22,043 nucleotides of DNA from an uncultured Nocardioides sp. (GTDB lineage: Bacteria; Actinomycetota; Actinomycetes; Propionibacteriales; Nocardioidaceae), in the NCBI RefSeq assembly GCF_946885725.1, contig NZ_CAMPGZ010000048.1, forward strand, positions 1 through 22,043, read 5' to 3'. Each line of letters starts with the position of its first letter. Positions within the stretch are counted from its first letter, which is position 1. Both the position numbers and the translations under genes were made by a program. Shown one piece after another: positions 6,550 through 12,121 of the stretch. The notes beneath the pieces were generated by a model. That model did not search any database. It was given only the letters and a program-made list of their open reading frames with translations, and was not told the DNA's origin.

Positions 6550-7614
6550 ATGCAGTCAGAGGAGCTTGCCGAACGCATCTTCATGTCGACGTTGGGTGCC
6601 GCGGAGATGGTCAGCGTGCACCTGTGCGAGCAGCTGGGGGTCTACCAGTTCCTGCACGACCACGGTCCCGCCACGGAGGCCGACGTGGCGAAGGCTTGCG
6701 GGATCGCACAGCGCTACGCGCGCGAGTTCCTGGAGCAGCAGGCGGTGGCCGGGTTCCTGACCACCGACGACGCCGACCTGCCCGCCGAGGAGCGTCGCTA
6801 CGAGCTGCCCCGTGAGCACGTGCCCGTGCTCATCGACAAGCACCACGTGCTGCACGCCGCGCCGTTCCCCCGGCTGTTCACCGCGGCAGCGCTGCAGGTG
6901 CCGGCGCTGCTCGAGGCGTACCGCACCGGCGGTGGTGTCCCCTGGAGCGCGTACGGCGAGTGGATGCGGACCGCGCAGGCGGAGGCGAACCGGCCGCTGT
7001 TCCTGGGGCCGCTGGGCACCGAGATGTTGCCGACGCTGTCCGACGTACACCAGCGGCTGACCGACGGCGGCACGGTCGCGGACATCGGCTGCGGCGACGG
7101 CTGGTCGTCGATCGGTATCGCCCGTGCCTACCCGCAGACGCGGGTGGACGGGTACGACGTCGACGCCGCCTCGATCGACGCGGCACGGCGCAACGCCAAG
7201 GAGTACGGCGTGGACGACCGGGTCACCTTCGCGCTCGTCGACGGCGCGTCGGTGCAGACGGACAAGCGCTACGACCTGGTCACGTTCTTCGAGTGCGTGC
7301 ACGACATGCCCGACCCGGTGAGCGTGCTCGCCGGTGCCCGGCGGATCGTCGCGGACGAGGGGACCGTGCTGGTGATGGACGAGAAGGTGGGCGAGAAGTT
7401 CACCGTGCCCTGCGACGAGATCGAGCGGATGATGTACGCCTACTCGTTCCTCGTCTGCCTGCCCGACGGGATGTCCCACCCCGACTCCGCGGGCACGGGG
7501 ACGGTGATGCGGCCGGCGACGCTGGAGAAGTACGCGACCGAGGCGGGGTACACCGGCCTTGACGTGCTCCCGATCGAGCACGACTTCTTCCGGTTCTACC
7601 GGCTCCAGCACTGA
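6550..7614 (+). CDS. Class I SAM-dependent methyltransferase with N-terminal winged-helix-like domain
   Basis: 354 residues. The N-terminal third (about 15-90) is a helical winged-helix-type dimerisation region as in many small-molecule methyltransferases ([23 protein letters not shown]). The Rossmann methyltransferase core follows: motif [13 protein letters not shown] at 176-187, acidic Asp203/Asp205 in [13 protein letters not shown] as motif II, and [11 protein letters not shown] as the motif IV region. It should transfer a methyl group from SAM to a small molecule; the substrate is not apparent. The ATG has a strong GGGAGGAG ribosome binding site. It is divergent from tetR and followed by a hairpin at 7615-7630, which suggests a separate transcript from the carboxylase operon. 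Its placement between repressor and target makes control by the same TetR possible. Confidence 0.85.
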
Positions 7615-7682: not shown

Positions 7683-9293
7683 ATGGCCACCGAGATGCGT
7701 GCGCTCGTCGACGACCTGCGCGAACGGCTCGCGACGGCGCGGCTCGGCGGCAGCGAGTCCGCGCGCAAGAAGCACCTCGACCGCGGCAAGCTGCTCGTCC
7801 GGGACCGCGTCGACCGGCTGCTCGACCCCGGGAGCCCGTTCCTCGAGCTCAGCCCGCTGGCCGCGACGGGCATGTACGACGACGCCGTACCGTCCGCCGG
7901 CATCGTCACCGGCATCGGGCGGGTCAGCGGCCGCGAGGTGGTCGTCGTCGCCAACGACGCGACGGTCAAGGGCGGGACGTACTACCCGATCACGGTCAAG
8001 AAGCACCTGCGCGCGCAGGAGGTGGCCCGCGCCAACCGGCTGCCGTGCGTGTACCTCGTCGACAGCGGCGGGGCGTTCCTGCCGATGCAGGACGAGGTGT
8101 TCCCCGACAAGGAGCACTTCGGCCGGATCTTCTTCAACCAGGCCAACCTGTCCGCGCAGGGCATCCCGCAGGTCGCCGCGGTGATGGGGTCGTGCACCGC
8201 CGGCGGCGCCTACGTCCCGGCGATGTCCGACGAGACCGTCATCGTCAAGGAGCAGGGCACGATCTTCCTCGGCGGCCCGCCCCTGGTGAAGGCCGCGACC
8301 GGTGAGGTCGTCACCGCCGAGGAGCTCGGTGGCGGTGACGTGCACGCCCGGAAGTCGGGCGTCGTGGACCACCTCGCCGACGACGACGCCCACGCGCTGC
8401 GCATCCTCCGGAGCATCGTCGGCACGTTCGAGCCCCCGTCGATTGGTCACGAACCGCATGGTTCGGCGCCGGTTTCTTGCGGTTGGGGACCAAACCGCAA
8501 CGCCCGGCCCCCGGCCGAGGTCGAGGAGCCGCTCGAGGACCCCGAGGGCCTGTACGACGTCGTGCCGACCGACTCGCGCACGCCGTACGACGTCCGGGAG
8601 GTCATCCGCCGGGTCGTCGACGCCAGCCGGTTCCACGAGTTCAAGGCGTTGTACGGCGAGACGCTGGTGTGCGGCTTCGCCAAGATCTGGGGCTACGACG
8701 TCGGGATCGTCGCCAACAACGGGATCCTGTTCAGCGAGTCGTCGCTGAAGGGCGCGCACTTCATCGAGCTGTGCAACCAGCGCGGCATCCCGCTGGTCTT
8801 CCTGCAGAACATCACCGGCTTCATGGTCGGCAAGGAGTACGAGAACGGCGGCATCGCGCGCGACGGCGCCAAGCTCGTCACCGCGGTCGCCTGCTCGGTG
8901 GTGCCGAAGTTCACCGTGGTCATCGGCGGCTCGTTCGGCGCCGGCAACTACGGCATGTGCGGCCGCGCCTACGACCCGCGCTTCCTGTGGATGTGGCCCA
9001 ACGCCCGCATCTCGGTGATGGGCGGCGAGCAGGCCGCGTCGGTGCTCGCGACCGTCCGCCGCGACGGCCTCGAGGCGCGCGGCGAGACCTGGACGGCCGA
9101 GGAGGAGGAGGCGTTCAAGGCGCCGATCCGCGAGCAGTACGAGACGCAGGGCTCGCCGTACTACTCCACCGCCCGGCTCTGGGACGACGGCGTCATCGAC
9201 CCCGTCGACACCCGCCGCGTGCTGGGCATGGGCCTCGCGGTCGCCGCGCACGCGCCGGTGCCCGAGCCCTCCTACGGCGTCTTCCGGATGTAA
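7683..9293 (+). CDS. accD1: Acyl-CoA carboxylase beta subunit, probably 3-methylcrotonyl-CoA carboxylase
   Basis: 536 residues. This carboxyltransferase moves CO2 from biotin to 3-methylcrotonyl-CoA in leucine breakdown. Both crotonase-like halves are present: the N half with [14 protein letters not shown] and [16 protein letters not shown], the C half with [50 protein letters not shown] and [32 protein letters not shown]. The last blocks are very close to mycobacterial AccD1 and mammalian MCCB rather than propionyl-CoA carboxylases. Residues 254-273, in the linker between the halves, are encoded by a double-hairpin element (8441-8500) and look foreign. The start is a leaderless ATG at 7683 in an operator. 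The alpha subunit gene follows 10 nt after the stop. The neighbouring HMG-CoA lyase supports the methylcrotonyl assignment. Confidence 0.93.
8441..8500. repeat. Double-hairpin palindromic element inserted in frame in accD1
   Basis: Two consecutive perfect hairpins: CGAACC (8450-8455) with GGTTCG (8460-8465), and TTGCGGTT (8477-8484) with AACCGCAA (8493-8500). Outer arms TTGGTC (8443-8448) and GACCAA (8488-8493) also pair. The stretch is visibly poorer in GC and in third-position G/C than the gene around it. It is read through in frame as I254 to N273 ([20 protein letters not shown]). The linker from SIV to LYDVVP is longer than I recall for AccD1 homologues. The features fit a REP- or RPE-like palindromic insertion tolerated in an interdomain linker. 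Confidence 0.7.
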
Positions 9294-9303
9294 GGGGATC
9301 CCA

Positions 9304-11196
9304 GTGTTCGAGTCCGTCCTCGTCGCCAACCGCGGCGAGATCGCGCTGCGGGTGATCCGCACCTGCCGCCGCCTCGGCGTGCGCAGCGTCGCGCTGTTCA
9401 CCGATCTCGACGCGTCCGCGCCGCACGTCCGCGAGGCCGACGACGCCGTCCGCGTCCCGTCGTACCTCGACGTCGACGCCGTCGTGCAGGCGGCCGTCGA
9501 GACCGGCGCGCAGGCGGTGCACCCCGGCTACGGCTTCCTGTCGGAGCGGGCGCCGTTCGCCCGCGCGCTCGACAAGGCCGGGATCACCCTGGTCGGCCCG
9601 TCCGCCGAGGTGATGGACGCGATGGGCCGCAAGGACGCCGCGCGCGAGATCGCCGTCGCGGCCGGTGTCCCGGTCGTGCCGCAGGGCGACCAGGCGGCCT
9701 TCCCGATCCTGGTCAAGGCCGCCGCCGGCGGTGGCGGCAAGGGCATGCGGGTCGTCCGGTCCGCCGAGGAGTACGACGAAGCCGTCGCCGCCGCGAAGCG
9801 GGAGGCGGCCGCGGCGTTCGGCGACGACACGATCCTCGTGGAGAAGTACGTCGAGCGCGGCCGGCACGTCGAGGTGCAGGTGCTCGCCGACACGCACGGC
9901 ACCGTGCTGCACCTGTTCGAGCGCGACTGCTCCACCCAGCGCCGGCACCAGAAGGTGCTGGAGGAGGCGCCCGCGCCGACCATCGACGCCGCGCAGCGCG
10001 AGGCGATCACGTCCTCGGCGGTAGCGCTGGCCCGCGAGGTCGGCTACACCAACGCCGGCACCGTCGAGTTCCTGCTCGACGACGTGACCGGCGACTTCTA
10101 CTTCCTGGAGATGAACACCCGGCTCCAGGTCGAGCACCCCGTCACCGAGATGGTGGCGCTCGTCAACGGCCGCAGCCTCGACCTGGTGGAGCACCAGCTG
10201 CGGGTCGCGGCGGGCGAGCCGCTGTCGTTCGCGCAGGACGACGTGGTGCTGACCGGGCACGCGATCGAGGCCCGGGTCTACGCCGAGGACTCGTTCGGCG
10301 GCTTCCTCCCGCAGGCCGGGCGCACGGAGATCGTGCGCTGGCCGGACCGGCACGGCCACGCCCGCGTGGACCACGCCCTCGAGGACGGCCAGGTCGTGTC
10401 GACGGCGTACGACCCGATGCTCGGCAAGGTGATCGTGCACGGCGAGACCCGCGAGGCCGCCCGGCAGGCGCTGGTGCGGGCGCTCGACGAGACCGCGGTG
10501 CTGGGGCTCACCACCAACACCGGCTTCCTGCGCGCGCTGGTCGCGGGCGACGAGTTCCGCGACGCGACGATCCACACCGCCTGGCTCGACACCGCCACGA
10601 TCGAGCCGCCGAGCGAGGACGTCGCCCGCACCATCGCGGCCTGGGTCGACGGCGCCGTGCTCACCGGCGGCGCCCCGCACCCCTTCCAGCTCGACGGCTG
10701 GCGGCACGGCGGCACGCCGGCGCCGGTCGTGGTCGACCTCGACCGCCCGCTGAAGGTCGTCCGCGAGGGCGGCGGCCGCGGCACGGTCGACGGCGTCCGG
10801 GTCGCGCAGGTGTCCGCGGAGCGCCACGAGGTCGTCGCGTTCGTCGACGGCACCCGGCACAGCGCCGTCGTCAACAGCGGCGCCCACGGCGTCGAGGTCG
10901 TGCACCGCGGGCAGCGGTTCGTGTTCACCCGGCCTGACCCGTTCGCCGACCCGGTCGCCGACGCGGGCGACGGCACGATCGCCGCGCCGATGCCCGGCAC
11001 CGTGCTCGACGTCCGCGTCGCCGAGGGTCAGCAGGTCGCCGAGGGCGACGTGCTCGGGGTGATGGAGGCGATGAAGATGGAGCTGTCGCTGAAGGCGCCG
11101 CTCGCCGGCACCGTGACGACCGTCGGCGCCGCGATGGGCGAACAGGTTGCCCTCGGCGCGGTGCTGTTCGTCGTGGAGGGAGAGGCCGATGCGTAG
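9304..11196 (+). CDS. accA1: Biotin-dependent acyl-CoA carboxylase alpha subunit (biotin carboxylase + BCCP)
   Basis: 630 residues. The biotin carboxylase part begins FESVLVANRGEIALRVIRTCRRLG, has the ATP-grasp glycine-rich loop VKAAAGGGGKGMRVV (about 138-152), a HVEVQVLAD block, and the active-site segment FLEMNTRLQVEHPVTE. A middle BT-like region (about 450-550) precedes the C-terminal biotin carboxyl carrier domain with the biotinylated Lys591 in EAMKMELS. It carboxylates its own biotin with ATP and bicarbonate and hands it to the beta subunit. GTG at 9304 is the start, with AAGGGGA upstream; it is 10 nt from the accD1 stop. The 3' end overlaps the HMG-CoA lyase start by eight bases. The partner and the next gene indicate leucine catabolism, though such alpha subunits can serve other carboxylases. 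Confidence 0.94.
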   Translation: MFESVLVANRGEIALRVIRTCRRLGVRSVALFTDLDASAPHVREADDAVRVPSYLDVDAVVQAAVETGAQAVHPGYGFLSERAPFARALDKAGITLVGPSAEVMDAMGRKDAAREIAVAAGVPVVPQGDQAAFPILVKAAAGGGGKGMRVVRSAEEYDEAVAAAKREAAAAFGDDTILVEKYVERGRHVEVQVLADTHGTVLHLFERDCSTQRRHQKVLEEAPAPTIDAAQREAITSSAVALAREVGYTNAGTVEFLLDDVTGDFYFLEMNTRLQVEHPVTEMVALVNGRSLDLVEHQLRVAAGEPLSFAQDDVVLTGHAIEARVYAEDSFGGFLPQAGRTEIVRWPDRHGHARVDHALEDGQVVSTAYDPMLGKVIVHGETREAARQALVRALDETAVLGLTTNTGFLRALVAGDEFRDATIHTAWLDTATIEPPSEDVARTIAAWVDGAVLTGGAPHPFQLDGWRHGGTPAPVVVDLDRPLKVVREGGGRGTVDGVRVAQVSAERHEVVAFVDGTRHSAVVNSGAHGVEVVHRGQRFVFTRPDPFADPVADAGDGTIAAPMPGTVLDVRVAEGQQVAEGDVLGVMEAMKMELSLKAPLAGTVTTVGAAMGEQVALGAVLFVVEGEADA

Positions 11197-12121
11197 CCCG
11201 CAGCTCGTCCGCGACCCGTCGCTGCCCGAGCGCGTCACGATCTACGAGGTCGGCCCGCGCGACGGGCTGCAGAACGAGTCCGCCGTCGTACCCGTCGAGA
11301 CCAAGGCCGCGTTCGTCAAGCGGCTCGTCGAGGCCGGGCTGCCGGTCGTCGAGGCCACGTCGTTCGTGCACCCGCGCTGGGTGCCGCAGCTCGCCGACGC
11401 CGCCGAGCTCGTCGACCGTCTCGTCGAGGACCTCGGTGACACCGCCCGCGAGATGCCGGTGCTGGTGCCCAACGAGCGCGGCCTCGACCGCGCGATCGAG
11501 AAGGGCATGCGGCACATCGCGATCTTCGGCAGCGCCACGGAGACGTTCGCGCAGAAGAACCTGAACCGGTCGCTCGACGAGCAGTTCGCGATGTTCGAGC
11601 CGACCGTGGCCCGAGCCCGTGAGGCCGGGCTCGACGTCCGCGCGTACGTCTCGATGTGCTTCGGCGACCCCTGGGAGGGCGACGTACCCGTCGAGCAGGT
11701 CGTCTCTGTCGGCAAGCGCCTCTTCGACCTGGGCGCGTCCCAGCTCTCGCTCGGCGACACCATCGGCGTCGGCACGCCCGGCCACGTCGTCGCGCTGCTC
11801 GACGCGTTCAACGCCGCCGGCCTCGCCGACGACGTACTCGCGATGCACTTCCACGACACCTACGGCCAGGCGCTCTCCAACGCCATGACCGCGCTGCGCC
11901 ACGGCGTCACGACGTTCGACGCCTCCGCCGGCGGCCTCGGCGGCTGCCCGTACGCCGAGAGCGCCACCGGCAACCTCGCCACCGAGGACCTGGTCTGGAT
12001 GCTGCACGGCCTCGGCATCGGGACCGGCGTCGACCTCGGACGCCTGGTCGCCACGAGCGTCTGGATGGCCGGCGAGCTCGGCCGCCCCAGCCCGTCCCGG
12101 GTCGTGCAGGCGCTGGCCTAG
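11189..12121 (+). CDS. mvaB: Hydroxymethylglutaryl-CoA lyase
   Basis: 310 residues of the HMG-CoA lyase/DRE-TIM family, which splits HMG-CoA into acetoacetate and acetyl-CoA, the last step of leucine breakdown. The signature parts are present: EVGPRDGLQNE with Arg24 and Asp25, VVEATSFVHPRWVPQ, the metal ligands His220 and His222 in MHFHDTYG, and the flexible loop GGLGGCPYAESATGN with Cys253. The ATG at 11189 is chosen because GGAGGGAGAGG lies directly upstream and the product begins at the usual place; an in-frame ATG at 11147 would run 42 bases into the alpha-subunit gene. Stop and start overlap as ATGCGTAG, which implies translational coupling. The enoyl-CoA hydratase and isovaleryl-CoA dehydrogenase usually near such operons are not in this window. 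Confidence 0.95.
   Translation: MRSPQLVRDPSLPERVTIYEVGPRDGLQNESAVVPVETKAAFVKRLVEAGLPVVEATSFVHPRWVPQLADAAELVDRLVEDLGDTAREMPVLVPNERGLDRAIEKGMRHIAIFGSATETFAQKNLNRSLDEQFAMFEPTVARAREAGLDVRAYVSMCFGDPWEGDVPVEQVVSVGKRLFDLGASQLSLGDTIGVGTPGHVVALLDAFNAAGLADDVLAMHFHDTYGQALSNAMTALRHGVTTFDASAGGLGGCPYAESATGNLATEDLVWMLHGLGIGTGVDLGRLVATSVWMAGELGRPSPSRVVQALA

What the first reader, a model, noticed from the sequence alone, without database searches (positions are those of the whole stretch)
8441..8500. A double-hairpin palindromic element translated in frame inside accD1
Two adjacent perfect hairpins (6-bp and 8-bp stems) plus a pairing outer arm fill a 60-bp stretch of accD1 with lower GC and atypical codon choice. 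The 20 encoded residues fall in the linker between the two carboxyltransferase halves, where an insertion is tolerable. This resembles palindromic elements that enter genes in frame in Rickettsia, but I know of no such case for actinobacterial AccD1. The mRNA hairpins could also slow ribosomes between the domains.
Basis: partly seen in the sequence, partly recalled or inferred. Interest (0 to 1): 0.72.

Follow-up and report, generated by a model that had tools for sequence, protein, structure and literature searches.

The report
Mobile palindromic repeat inside accD1
A short palindromic DNA repeat known from other places in Nocardioides genomes sits in reading frame in the loop between the two halves of a metabolic enzyme, and copies of the same repeat flank the gene of an unstudied nuclease-like protein that may be what spreads it.

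Summary
Window 8437-8499 is a 63-bp pair of 22-bp palindromic units starting 41 bp apart. It matches the consensus of 28 fetched dyads at 44 of 55 columns; the next place in the window scores 29. Two unit variants occur in 33 and 37 of 215 Nocardioides genomes, controls 0. Of 40 sampled places 35 are intergenic; others are in frame in linkers, notably fused CobIJ (12 of 20 linkers read). Among 120 AccD1 homologues 7 carry the element. New here: dyads flank a fast-evolving, unannotated gene, usually beside pafA, whose predicted fold joins an AbiEi-like part to a Vsr/I-Bth0305I-like nuclease. 42 of 48 unit-bearing genomes have this gene, against 60 of 215 overall, and copies cluster near it. The Y1 domain of RAYT transposases is in 1 of 215. 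It works like REP-RAYT with a different candidate enzyme. Mobilisation by that enzyme is inferred, not shown.

The parts
7683..9293 (+). accD1/mccB-like gene (acyl-CoA carboxylase carboxyltransferase subunit) that hosts the element
8437..8499 (.). whole element: dyad of two 22-bp palindromic units, 63 bp = 21 codons, translated in frame
   Evidence: 44 of 55 informative columns of the dyad consensus, next place 29; consensus from 28 dyads
8437..8458 (.). first palindromic unit (degenerate)
8459..8477 (.). 19-bp spacer with a central GGCGCC; unit starts are 41 bp apart
   Evidence: core-to-core spacing 40 or 41 in 40 of 42 counted near the nuclease-like genes
8478..8499 (.). second palindromic unit
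8450..8465 (+). 6-bp stem, 4-nt loop
8477..8500 (+). 8-bp perfect stem, 8-nt loop

Best explanation
SHOWN by comparison: the stretch is one copy of a dispersed 63-bp palindromic dyad (a REP/REPIN-like element) of Nocardioidaceae. It lies in frame in the interdomain linker of AccD1, where extra codons without a stop are tolerated. Other copies lie in frame in the linker of a fused CobI-CobJ-like protein. SHOWN as association: dyads of the same kind flank, on both sides, a rapidly evolving gene that is usually just upstream of pafA. Its predicted protein combines an AbiEi-like N-terminal part with a Vsr/I-Bth0305I-like nuclease domain. Copies cluster around that gene and occur mostly in genomes that have it. 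INFERRED: this protein recognises the palindromic unit (probably through the AbiEi-like part), cuts at or near it, and the element is copied to new places during repair or replication, with a preference for nearby DNA. Selection removes copies that break genes, so what remains is intergenic copies and in-frame copies in linkers. Likelihoods: in-frame copy of a dispersed element about 0.95; the nuclease-like protein is what spreads it about 0.6.
Against: No activity is shown. Six unit-bearing genomes lack the gene by my cut: G016, G025, G174, G177, G180, G181. G180 has a piece cut at a contig end and in G177 and G181 no PafA was found either, but G025 has 16 unit copies, 12 of them at 4.50-4.71 Mb around pafA, and no nuclease-like gene was found there. 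With the 19-mer, genomes without the gene also have matches: G062 (4), G177 (13), G181 (16) and eight with one. 18 of the 60 genomes with the gene have neither unit variant, and 6 of 60 loci show no shared flank word of 10 bp. Three remoter members that also lie beside pafA (L219, L226, L237) show no clear dyad. The counts ignore kinship of the genomes. The gene is mostly in one place, so it does not itself hop. No target-site duplication was established. Clustering is not general: 1 of 13 in G082, 0 of 2 in G161, 0 of 3 in G171 lie within 100 kb. The longest shared flank word is direct in 16 and inverted in 31 loci, not always inverted. Pfam barely recognises the protein (of 40 members: AbiEi_1 in 4, best E 0.00068; DUF559 in 1, E 0.0038).
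Confidence: 0.72

Rival explanations
1. The protein is an AbiEi-type DNA-binding regulator; the palindromic dyads are its operators (own promoter and a regulon), and the copy in accD1 is a stray or weak operator.
For: AbiEi-like N-terminal part; a dyad lies upstream of the gene in many loci; palindromic dyads resemble dimer sites.
Against: In many loci a dyad also overlaps the 3' end of the gene. Copies form arrays with a 41-bp period in G082 and G157, cluster around the gene in several genomes and sit inside coding linkers. A nuclease domain is not needed for a regulator.
Confidence: 0.15
2. The dyads are spread by some other factor (host repair, replication slippage, an unknown transposase); the nuclease-like gene is merely one favoured landing place or a passenger.
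For: Six unit-bearing genomes lack the gene by my cut; G025 keeps 16 copies without it.
Against: 54 of 60 loci share a word of 10 bp or more between both flanks; remoter paralogues carry different flanking dyads, and the two tested recur in some of their own genomes; the Y1 domain was not found in 214 of 215.
Confidence: 0.2
3. Not a mobile element: a chance palindromic, AT-richer stretch in a fast-diverging linker.
For: Stem count and RNA fold are not beyond chance; the linker varies widely in length.
Against: 44 of 55 consensus columns with the 41-bp unit spacing, window mean 15.4, sd 3.1; dispersed copies.
Confidence: 0.02
4. The insert is functional in AccD1 (a regulatory loop, or mRNA hairpins that pace translation between domains) and is kept for that.
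For: Four near relatives (P0001-P0004) keep it in frame.
Against: RNA fold z -0.25; neighbouring lineages have other inserts or none at the same place, and the residues differ between carriers.
Confidence: 0.06

Closest known systems
REP / REPIN elements with RAYT (TnpA_REP) tyrosine transposases ('REPtrons')
   Same: Short palindromic units in dyads and arrays, mostly extragenic; gene flanked by the units; co-variation of gene and unit; gene evolves faster than neighbours; gene stays in place; in four species REPs accumulate near the gene within about 200 kb (passages of PMC2817692). Intragenic REPs are also reported (passages of PMC3733652).
   Different: Candidate enzyme is not a Y1/HUH transposase (PF01797 in 1 of 215) but an AbiEi-Vsr-like protein. 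No GTAG or CGTC head in 28 dyads. Lineage is actinobacterial; that 2010 survey found suitable RAYTs only in gammaproteobacteria.
Rickettsia palindromic elements (RPE)
   Same: Palindromic repeats translated in frame inside unrelated genes (passages of the review PMC10969869).
   Different: RPEs are given as about 150 bp in the passages seen, which name no enzyme; here 63 bp, mostly intergenic, with a linked gene.
Vsr / EDxHD homing endonucleases (I-Bth0305I)
   Same: Predicted fold of residues 184-284. That homing genes are mobile and paired with a cut site is recalled.
   Different: Here joined to an AbiEi-like part, the gene mostly stays in place, and the repeated thing is the palindrome, not the gene.
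AbiEi antitoxins (type IV toxin-antitoxin)
   Different: Fused to a nuclease-like domain; an AbiEii partner gene was not searched for.

Membership tests
REP/REPIN element | short palindromic unit, often in dyads or arrays | tested here: met
   22-bp unit, 40-41-bp spacing, arrays in G082 and G157
REP/REPIN element | many copies per genome, mainly extragenic | tested here: met
   up to 69 matches of one unit variant in one genome (G169); 35 of 40 sampled places intergenic by a home-made caller; below the >100 copies said to be usual for REPs (PMC2817692)
REP/REPIN element | GTAG (or CGTC) head | tested here: not met
   0 of 28 dyads; the window's own first unit begins CGTC
REP-RAYT system | Y1/HUH tyrosine transposase (PF01797) linked to the repeat | tested here: not met
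   1 of 215 genomes, not a unit carrier
REP-RAYT system | associated gene flanked by two copies that co-vary with it | tested here: met
   54 of 60 loci share a flank word of 10 bp or more; for the nuclease-like gene, not a RAYT; longest word inverted in 31, direct in 16
Rickettsia palindromic element | in-frame insertion into coding genes | tested here: met
   AccD1, CobIJ-like, UDG-superfamily and MFS genes
Rickettsia palindromic element | sequence relation to RPE families | not tested
   no RPE sequence was fetched
Vsr/EDxHD nuclease | Vsr-like fold | tested here: met
Vsr/EDxHD nuclease | DNA cleavage | not testable with these tools
   invariant E187, D219, E230, D232, H236 in 40 sequences are only suggestive
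AbiEi antitoxin | AbiEi fold and Pfam match | tested here: inconclusive

The most novel reading that the evidence does not exclude
A second, enzymatically unrelated kind of REP system exists in actinobacteria. AbiEi-Vsr-type proteins, each lineage with its own palindromic dyad on both flanks, spread those dyads locally and across the chromosome. In-frame linker insertions such as those in AccD1 and CobIJ are the protein-level footprint, so these repeats repeatedly supply new linker sequence to core enzymes.
Probability: 0.55. Interest if true: 0.88.

Novelty: new variant of a known kind. Interest (0 to 1): 0.76.

Why it matters
REPs are a common kind of bacterial repeat, and CGTC-tagged REPs, for example, apparently lack a dedicated transposase (abstract passage of PMC3733652). 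A repeat family tied to a non-HUH nuclease-like gene would mean that REP-type spread arose more than once with different chemistry, and gives a pair that can be tested in vitro at once. It also shows a traceable source of new interdomain linker sequence in conserved enzymes.

Tried and rejected
Hairpins as RNA structure: fold z -0.25, stem count near chance, Rfam gave one chance-level match (E 0.79) outside the element. Second copy in the window: none; the only other match is the reverse strand of the same place. Source genome: not held. Twelve genomes behind Nocardioidaceae and other loci had no match to the 19-mer at up to 2 mismatches. Nuclease-like gene near pafA in G025 and G016: none found; a gene that looks like an FAD oxidoreductase (recalled, no family search) lies there. 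RAYT as mobiliser: rejected. CGTC-tagged REP family: the window unit starts CGTC, but 0 of 28 dyads have that head. The paralogue pattern GGTGGCGGCANATNNCA found nothing in G093 and G075 although G093 was chosen for such flanks, and gave one match each in G065 and G076 and two, both beside the gene, in G091. AACTGGTCGATGGATG in G073 matched only beside the gene. The second repeat family of other AccD1 linkers (TTTCGAGAC..CAACCACC) gave 3 matches in 1.61 Mb of 80 loci, reversed control 0, and a related form 0; it was not followed to an enzyme. Literature: in the listings (titles and abstract starts only; two searches listed nothing) no paper appeared that links DUF559, Vsr or AbiEi proteins to REP-like repeats. 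Passages were read of PMC2817692, PMC3733652 and PMC10969869, and outline with abstract of PMC8266576; no paper was read whole. The library lacks most subscription journals and holds no bioRxiv preprints.

Full report
WHAT IS IN THE WINDOW. accD1 (7683-9293, +) lies between a methyltransferase gene (6550-7614) and genes for a biotin carboxylase subunit (9304-11196) and an HMGL-like protein (ORF 11147-12121). Its closest named homologue is from Nocardioides iriomotensis, 92%, so the source is probably a Nocardioidaceae. No whole genome is held for it. Composition is odd: GC3 0.50 against 0.968.

THE LINKER. Of 7999 AccD1 homologues scored, 120 are listed. 110 linkers could be delimited by script; 46 have 23 residues, the rest 22 to 56. 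Seven of 120 carry residues like those of the window (P0001-P0004, P0088, P0115, P0118; read by eye; the expression labelled only 5 and failed to delimit 10 linkers). At DNA level 30 Nocardioides loci were fetched and 27 linkers read; 2 of 27 (L112, L115, same linker) carry the element, and several others carry different repeat-like inserts, by eye. In the 80 loci, linkers outside Nocardioidaceae that the script could delimit are 37-38 residues on the script's anchors; many proteobacterial ones were not delimited. On a tree of 146 AccD1 rows made without the linker (3 of 149 rows dropped), 9 carriers need 7 changes of state; shuffled labels need 8.8 on average and 7 of 500 shuffles were as low; starred branches force only 2. 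So several origins are likely, not proven.

THE ELEMENT. Searching 215 Nocardioides genomes with the first arm (19-mer, up to 2 mismatches) gave 46 genomes with a match and one control match. Two 22-bp unit variants, up to one mismatch, gave 33 and 37 of 215, controls 0. Twenty-eight dyads from fetched loci give a 63-bp consensus. The window matches it at 44 of 55 informative columns at 8437 on both strands; next best 29. Its best single dyad match is 51 of 63. Of 40 places sampled away from the nuclease-like gene in six genomes (38 loci), a home-made GC-frame caller put 35 between genes and 5 inside genes. The five are the linker of a protein with two tetrapyrrole-methylase domains in three genomes (fused CobI-CobJ by recall; Pfam run on one of the three), an N-terminal part of a UDG-superfamily protein and a stretch of an MFS protein. 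For CobIJ, 28 genomes were searched, 25 had a match, and 20 linkers were read: 12 with the dyad in frame (one degenerate), 6 without an insert of this kind, 2 with a different repeat. Interdomain linkers are thus recurrent landing places, or the places where landing is survived.

THE ASSOCIATED GENE. Seven of the 30 loci (L089, L091, L092, L094, L096, L105, L108) have the match at the end of a gene whose last codons and stop are made by the element. The protein (about 325 aa) is unnamed or 'hypothetical' in most listed sources, twice 'very-short-patch-repair endonuclease'. Sixty of 215 genomes have a close member (my cut, E about 1e-79 or better); 190 of 215 have any match. In 60 loci the 5' and 3' flanks share an identical word of 10 bp or more in 54, against 10 with a coding-region control (18 duplicate loci dropped). 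In 20 remoter paralogues it is 12 against 1, but with other words, i.e. other dyads. One such word has 10 matches in its own genome G044, 2 in G073 (beside the gene), and none in 14 others; another has 25 in G061 and 4 in G027 (misses under Tried and rejected). A PafA motif lies downstream in 49 of 60 close members and 3 of 20 paralogues; these three show no clear dyad. In 4 of 6 loci printed the upstream gene is the proteasome alpha subunit, by sequence recalled; one has another gene and one was not resolved. Of 30 genomes searched for PafA, most chosen for lacking the gene, 28 gave loci; none has a nuclease match within the fetched stretch (1.5 kb upstream), and the prcA-pafA gap is 9-124 bp in 9, 224-984 bp in 5 and not measured in 14.

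LINKAGE AND COEVOLUTION. 48 genomes have a unit of either variant; 42 of them are among the 60 with the gene (not corrected for kinship; 18 of the 60 have neither variant). In 11 genomes treated as one chromosome (for six of these the rounded genome size stood for contig length; listings are cut per genome), 33 of 89 elements lie within 100 kb of the gene, 3.5 expected; the share runs from 5 of 5 (G164) to 0 of 3 (G171), and two single contigs were counted apart. The nuclease-like protein is less alike than PafA (first 250 residues at most) in all 990 pairs of 45 loci, 56% against 97%. These are the traits reported for RAYTs: flanking REPs, co-evolution, fast change, and in some species accumulation near the gene (passages of PMC2817692). 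The Y1 domain of RAYTs is found in 1 of 215 genomes, one without units.

VERDICT. In-frame copy of a dispersed palindromic dyad: firm. Partner gene: firm as association. Mobilisation by that protein: inferred, about 0.6. It works like a REP system; it is not a member of the RAYT system, because the defining enzyme was tested and not met, nor of the GTAG/CGTC REP superfamilies (head not met).

Noticed in passing
L111, L116, L024 (AccD1 linkers); L324, L325 (CobIJ linkers): A different repeat family (TTTCGAGAC .. CAACCACC or its inverse, by eye) also lies in frame in the same two interdomain linkers.
   Followed up: partly
P0082: AccD1 linker with head-to-tail TGSTTRQ-like repeats.
   Followed up: no
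L221, L222, L228-L231, L233-L235, L238: Remoter paralogues of the nuclease-like gene have flanking repeats of their own, often as inverted dyads and differing between lineages (by eye).
   Followed up: partly
L291, L293, L284, L292 upstream of pafA: Four genomes without the nuclease-like gene beside pafA have a gene there on the opposite strand that looks like an FAD oxidoreductase (recalled, no family search).
   Followed up: no
G025:C1:4501520-4708403: 12 of 16 unit copies lie within about 200 kb around pafA in a genome without the nuclease-like gene: perhaps a relic of a lost copy.
   Followed up: partly
L262, L264 (G082): Further in-frame copies in an MFS transporter and in the N-terminal part of a UDG-superfamily protein.
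   Followed up: partly
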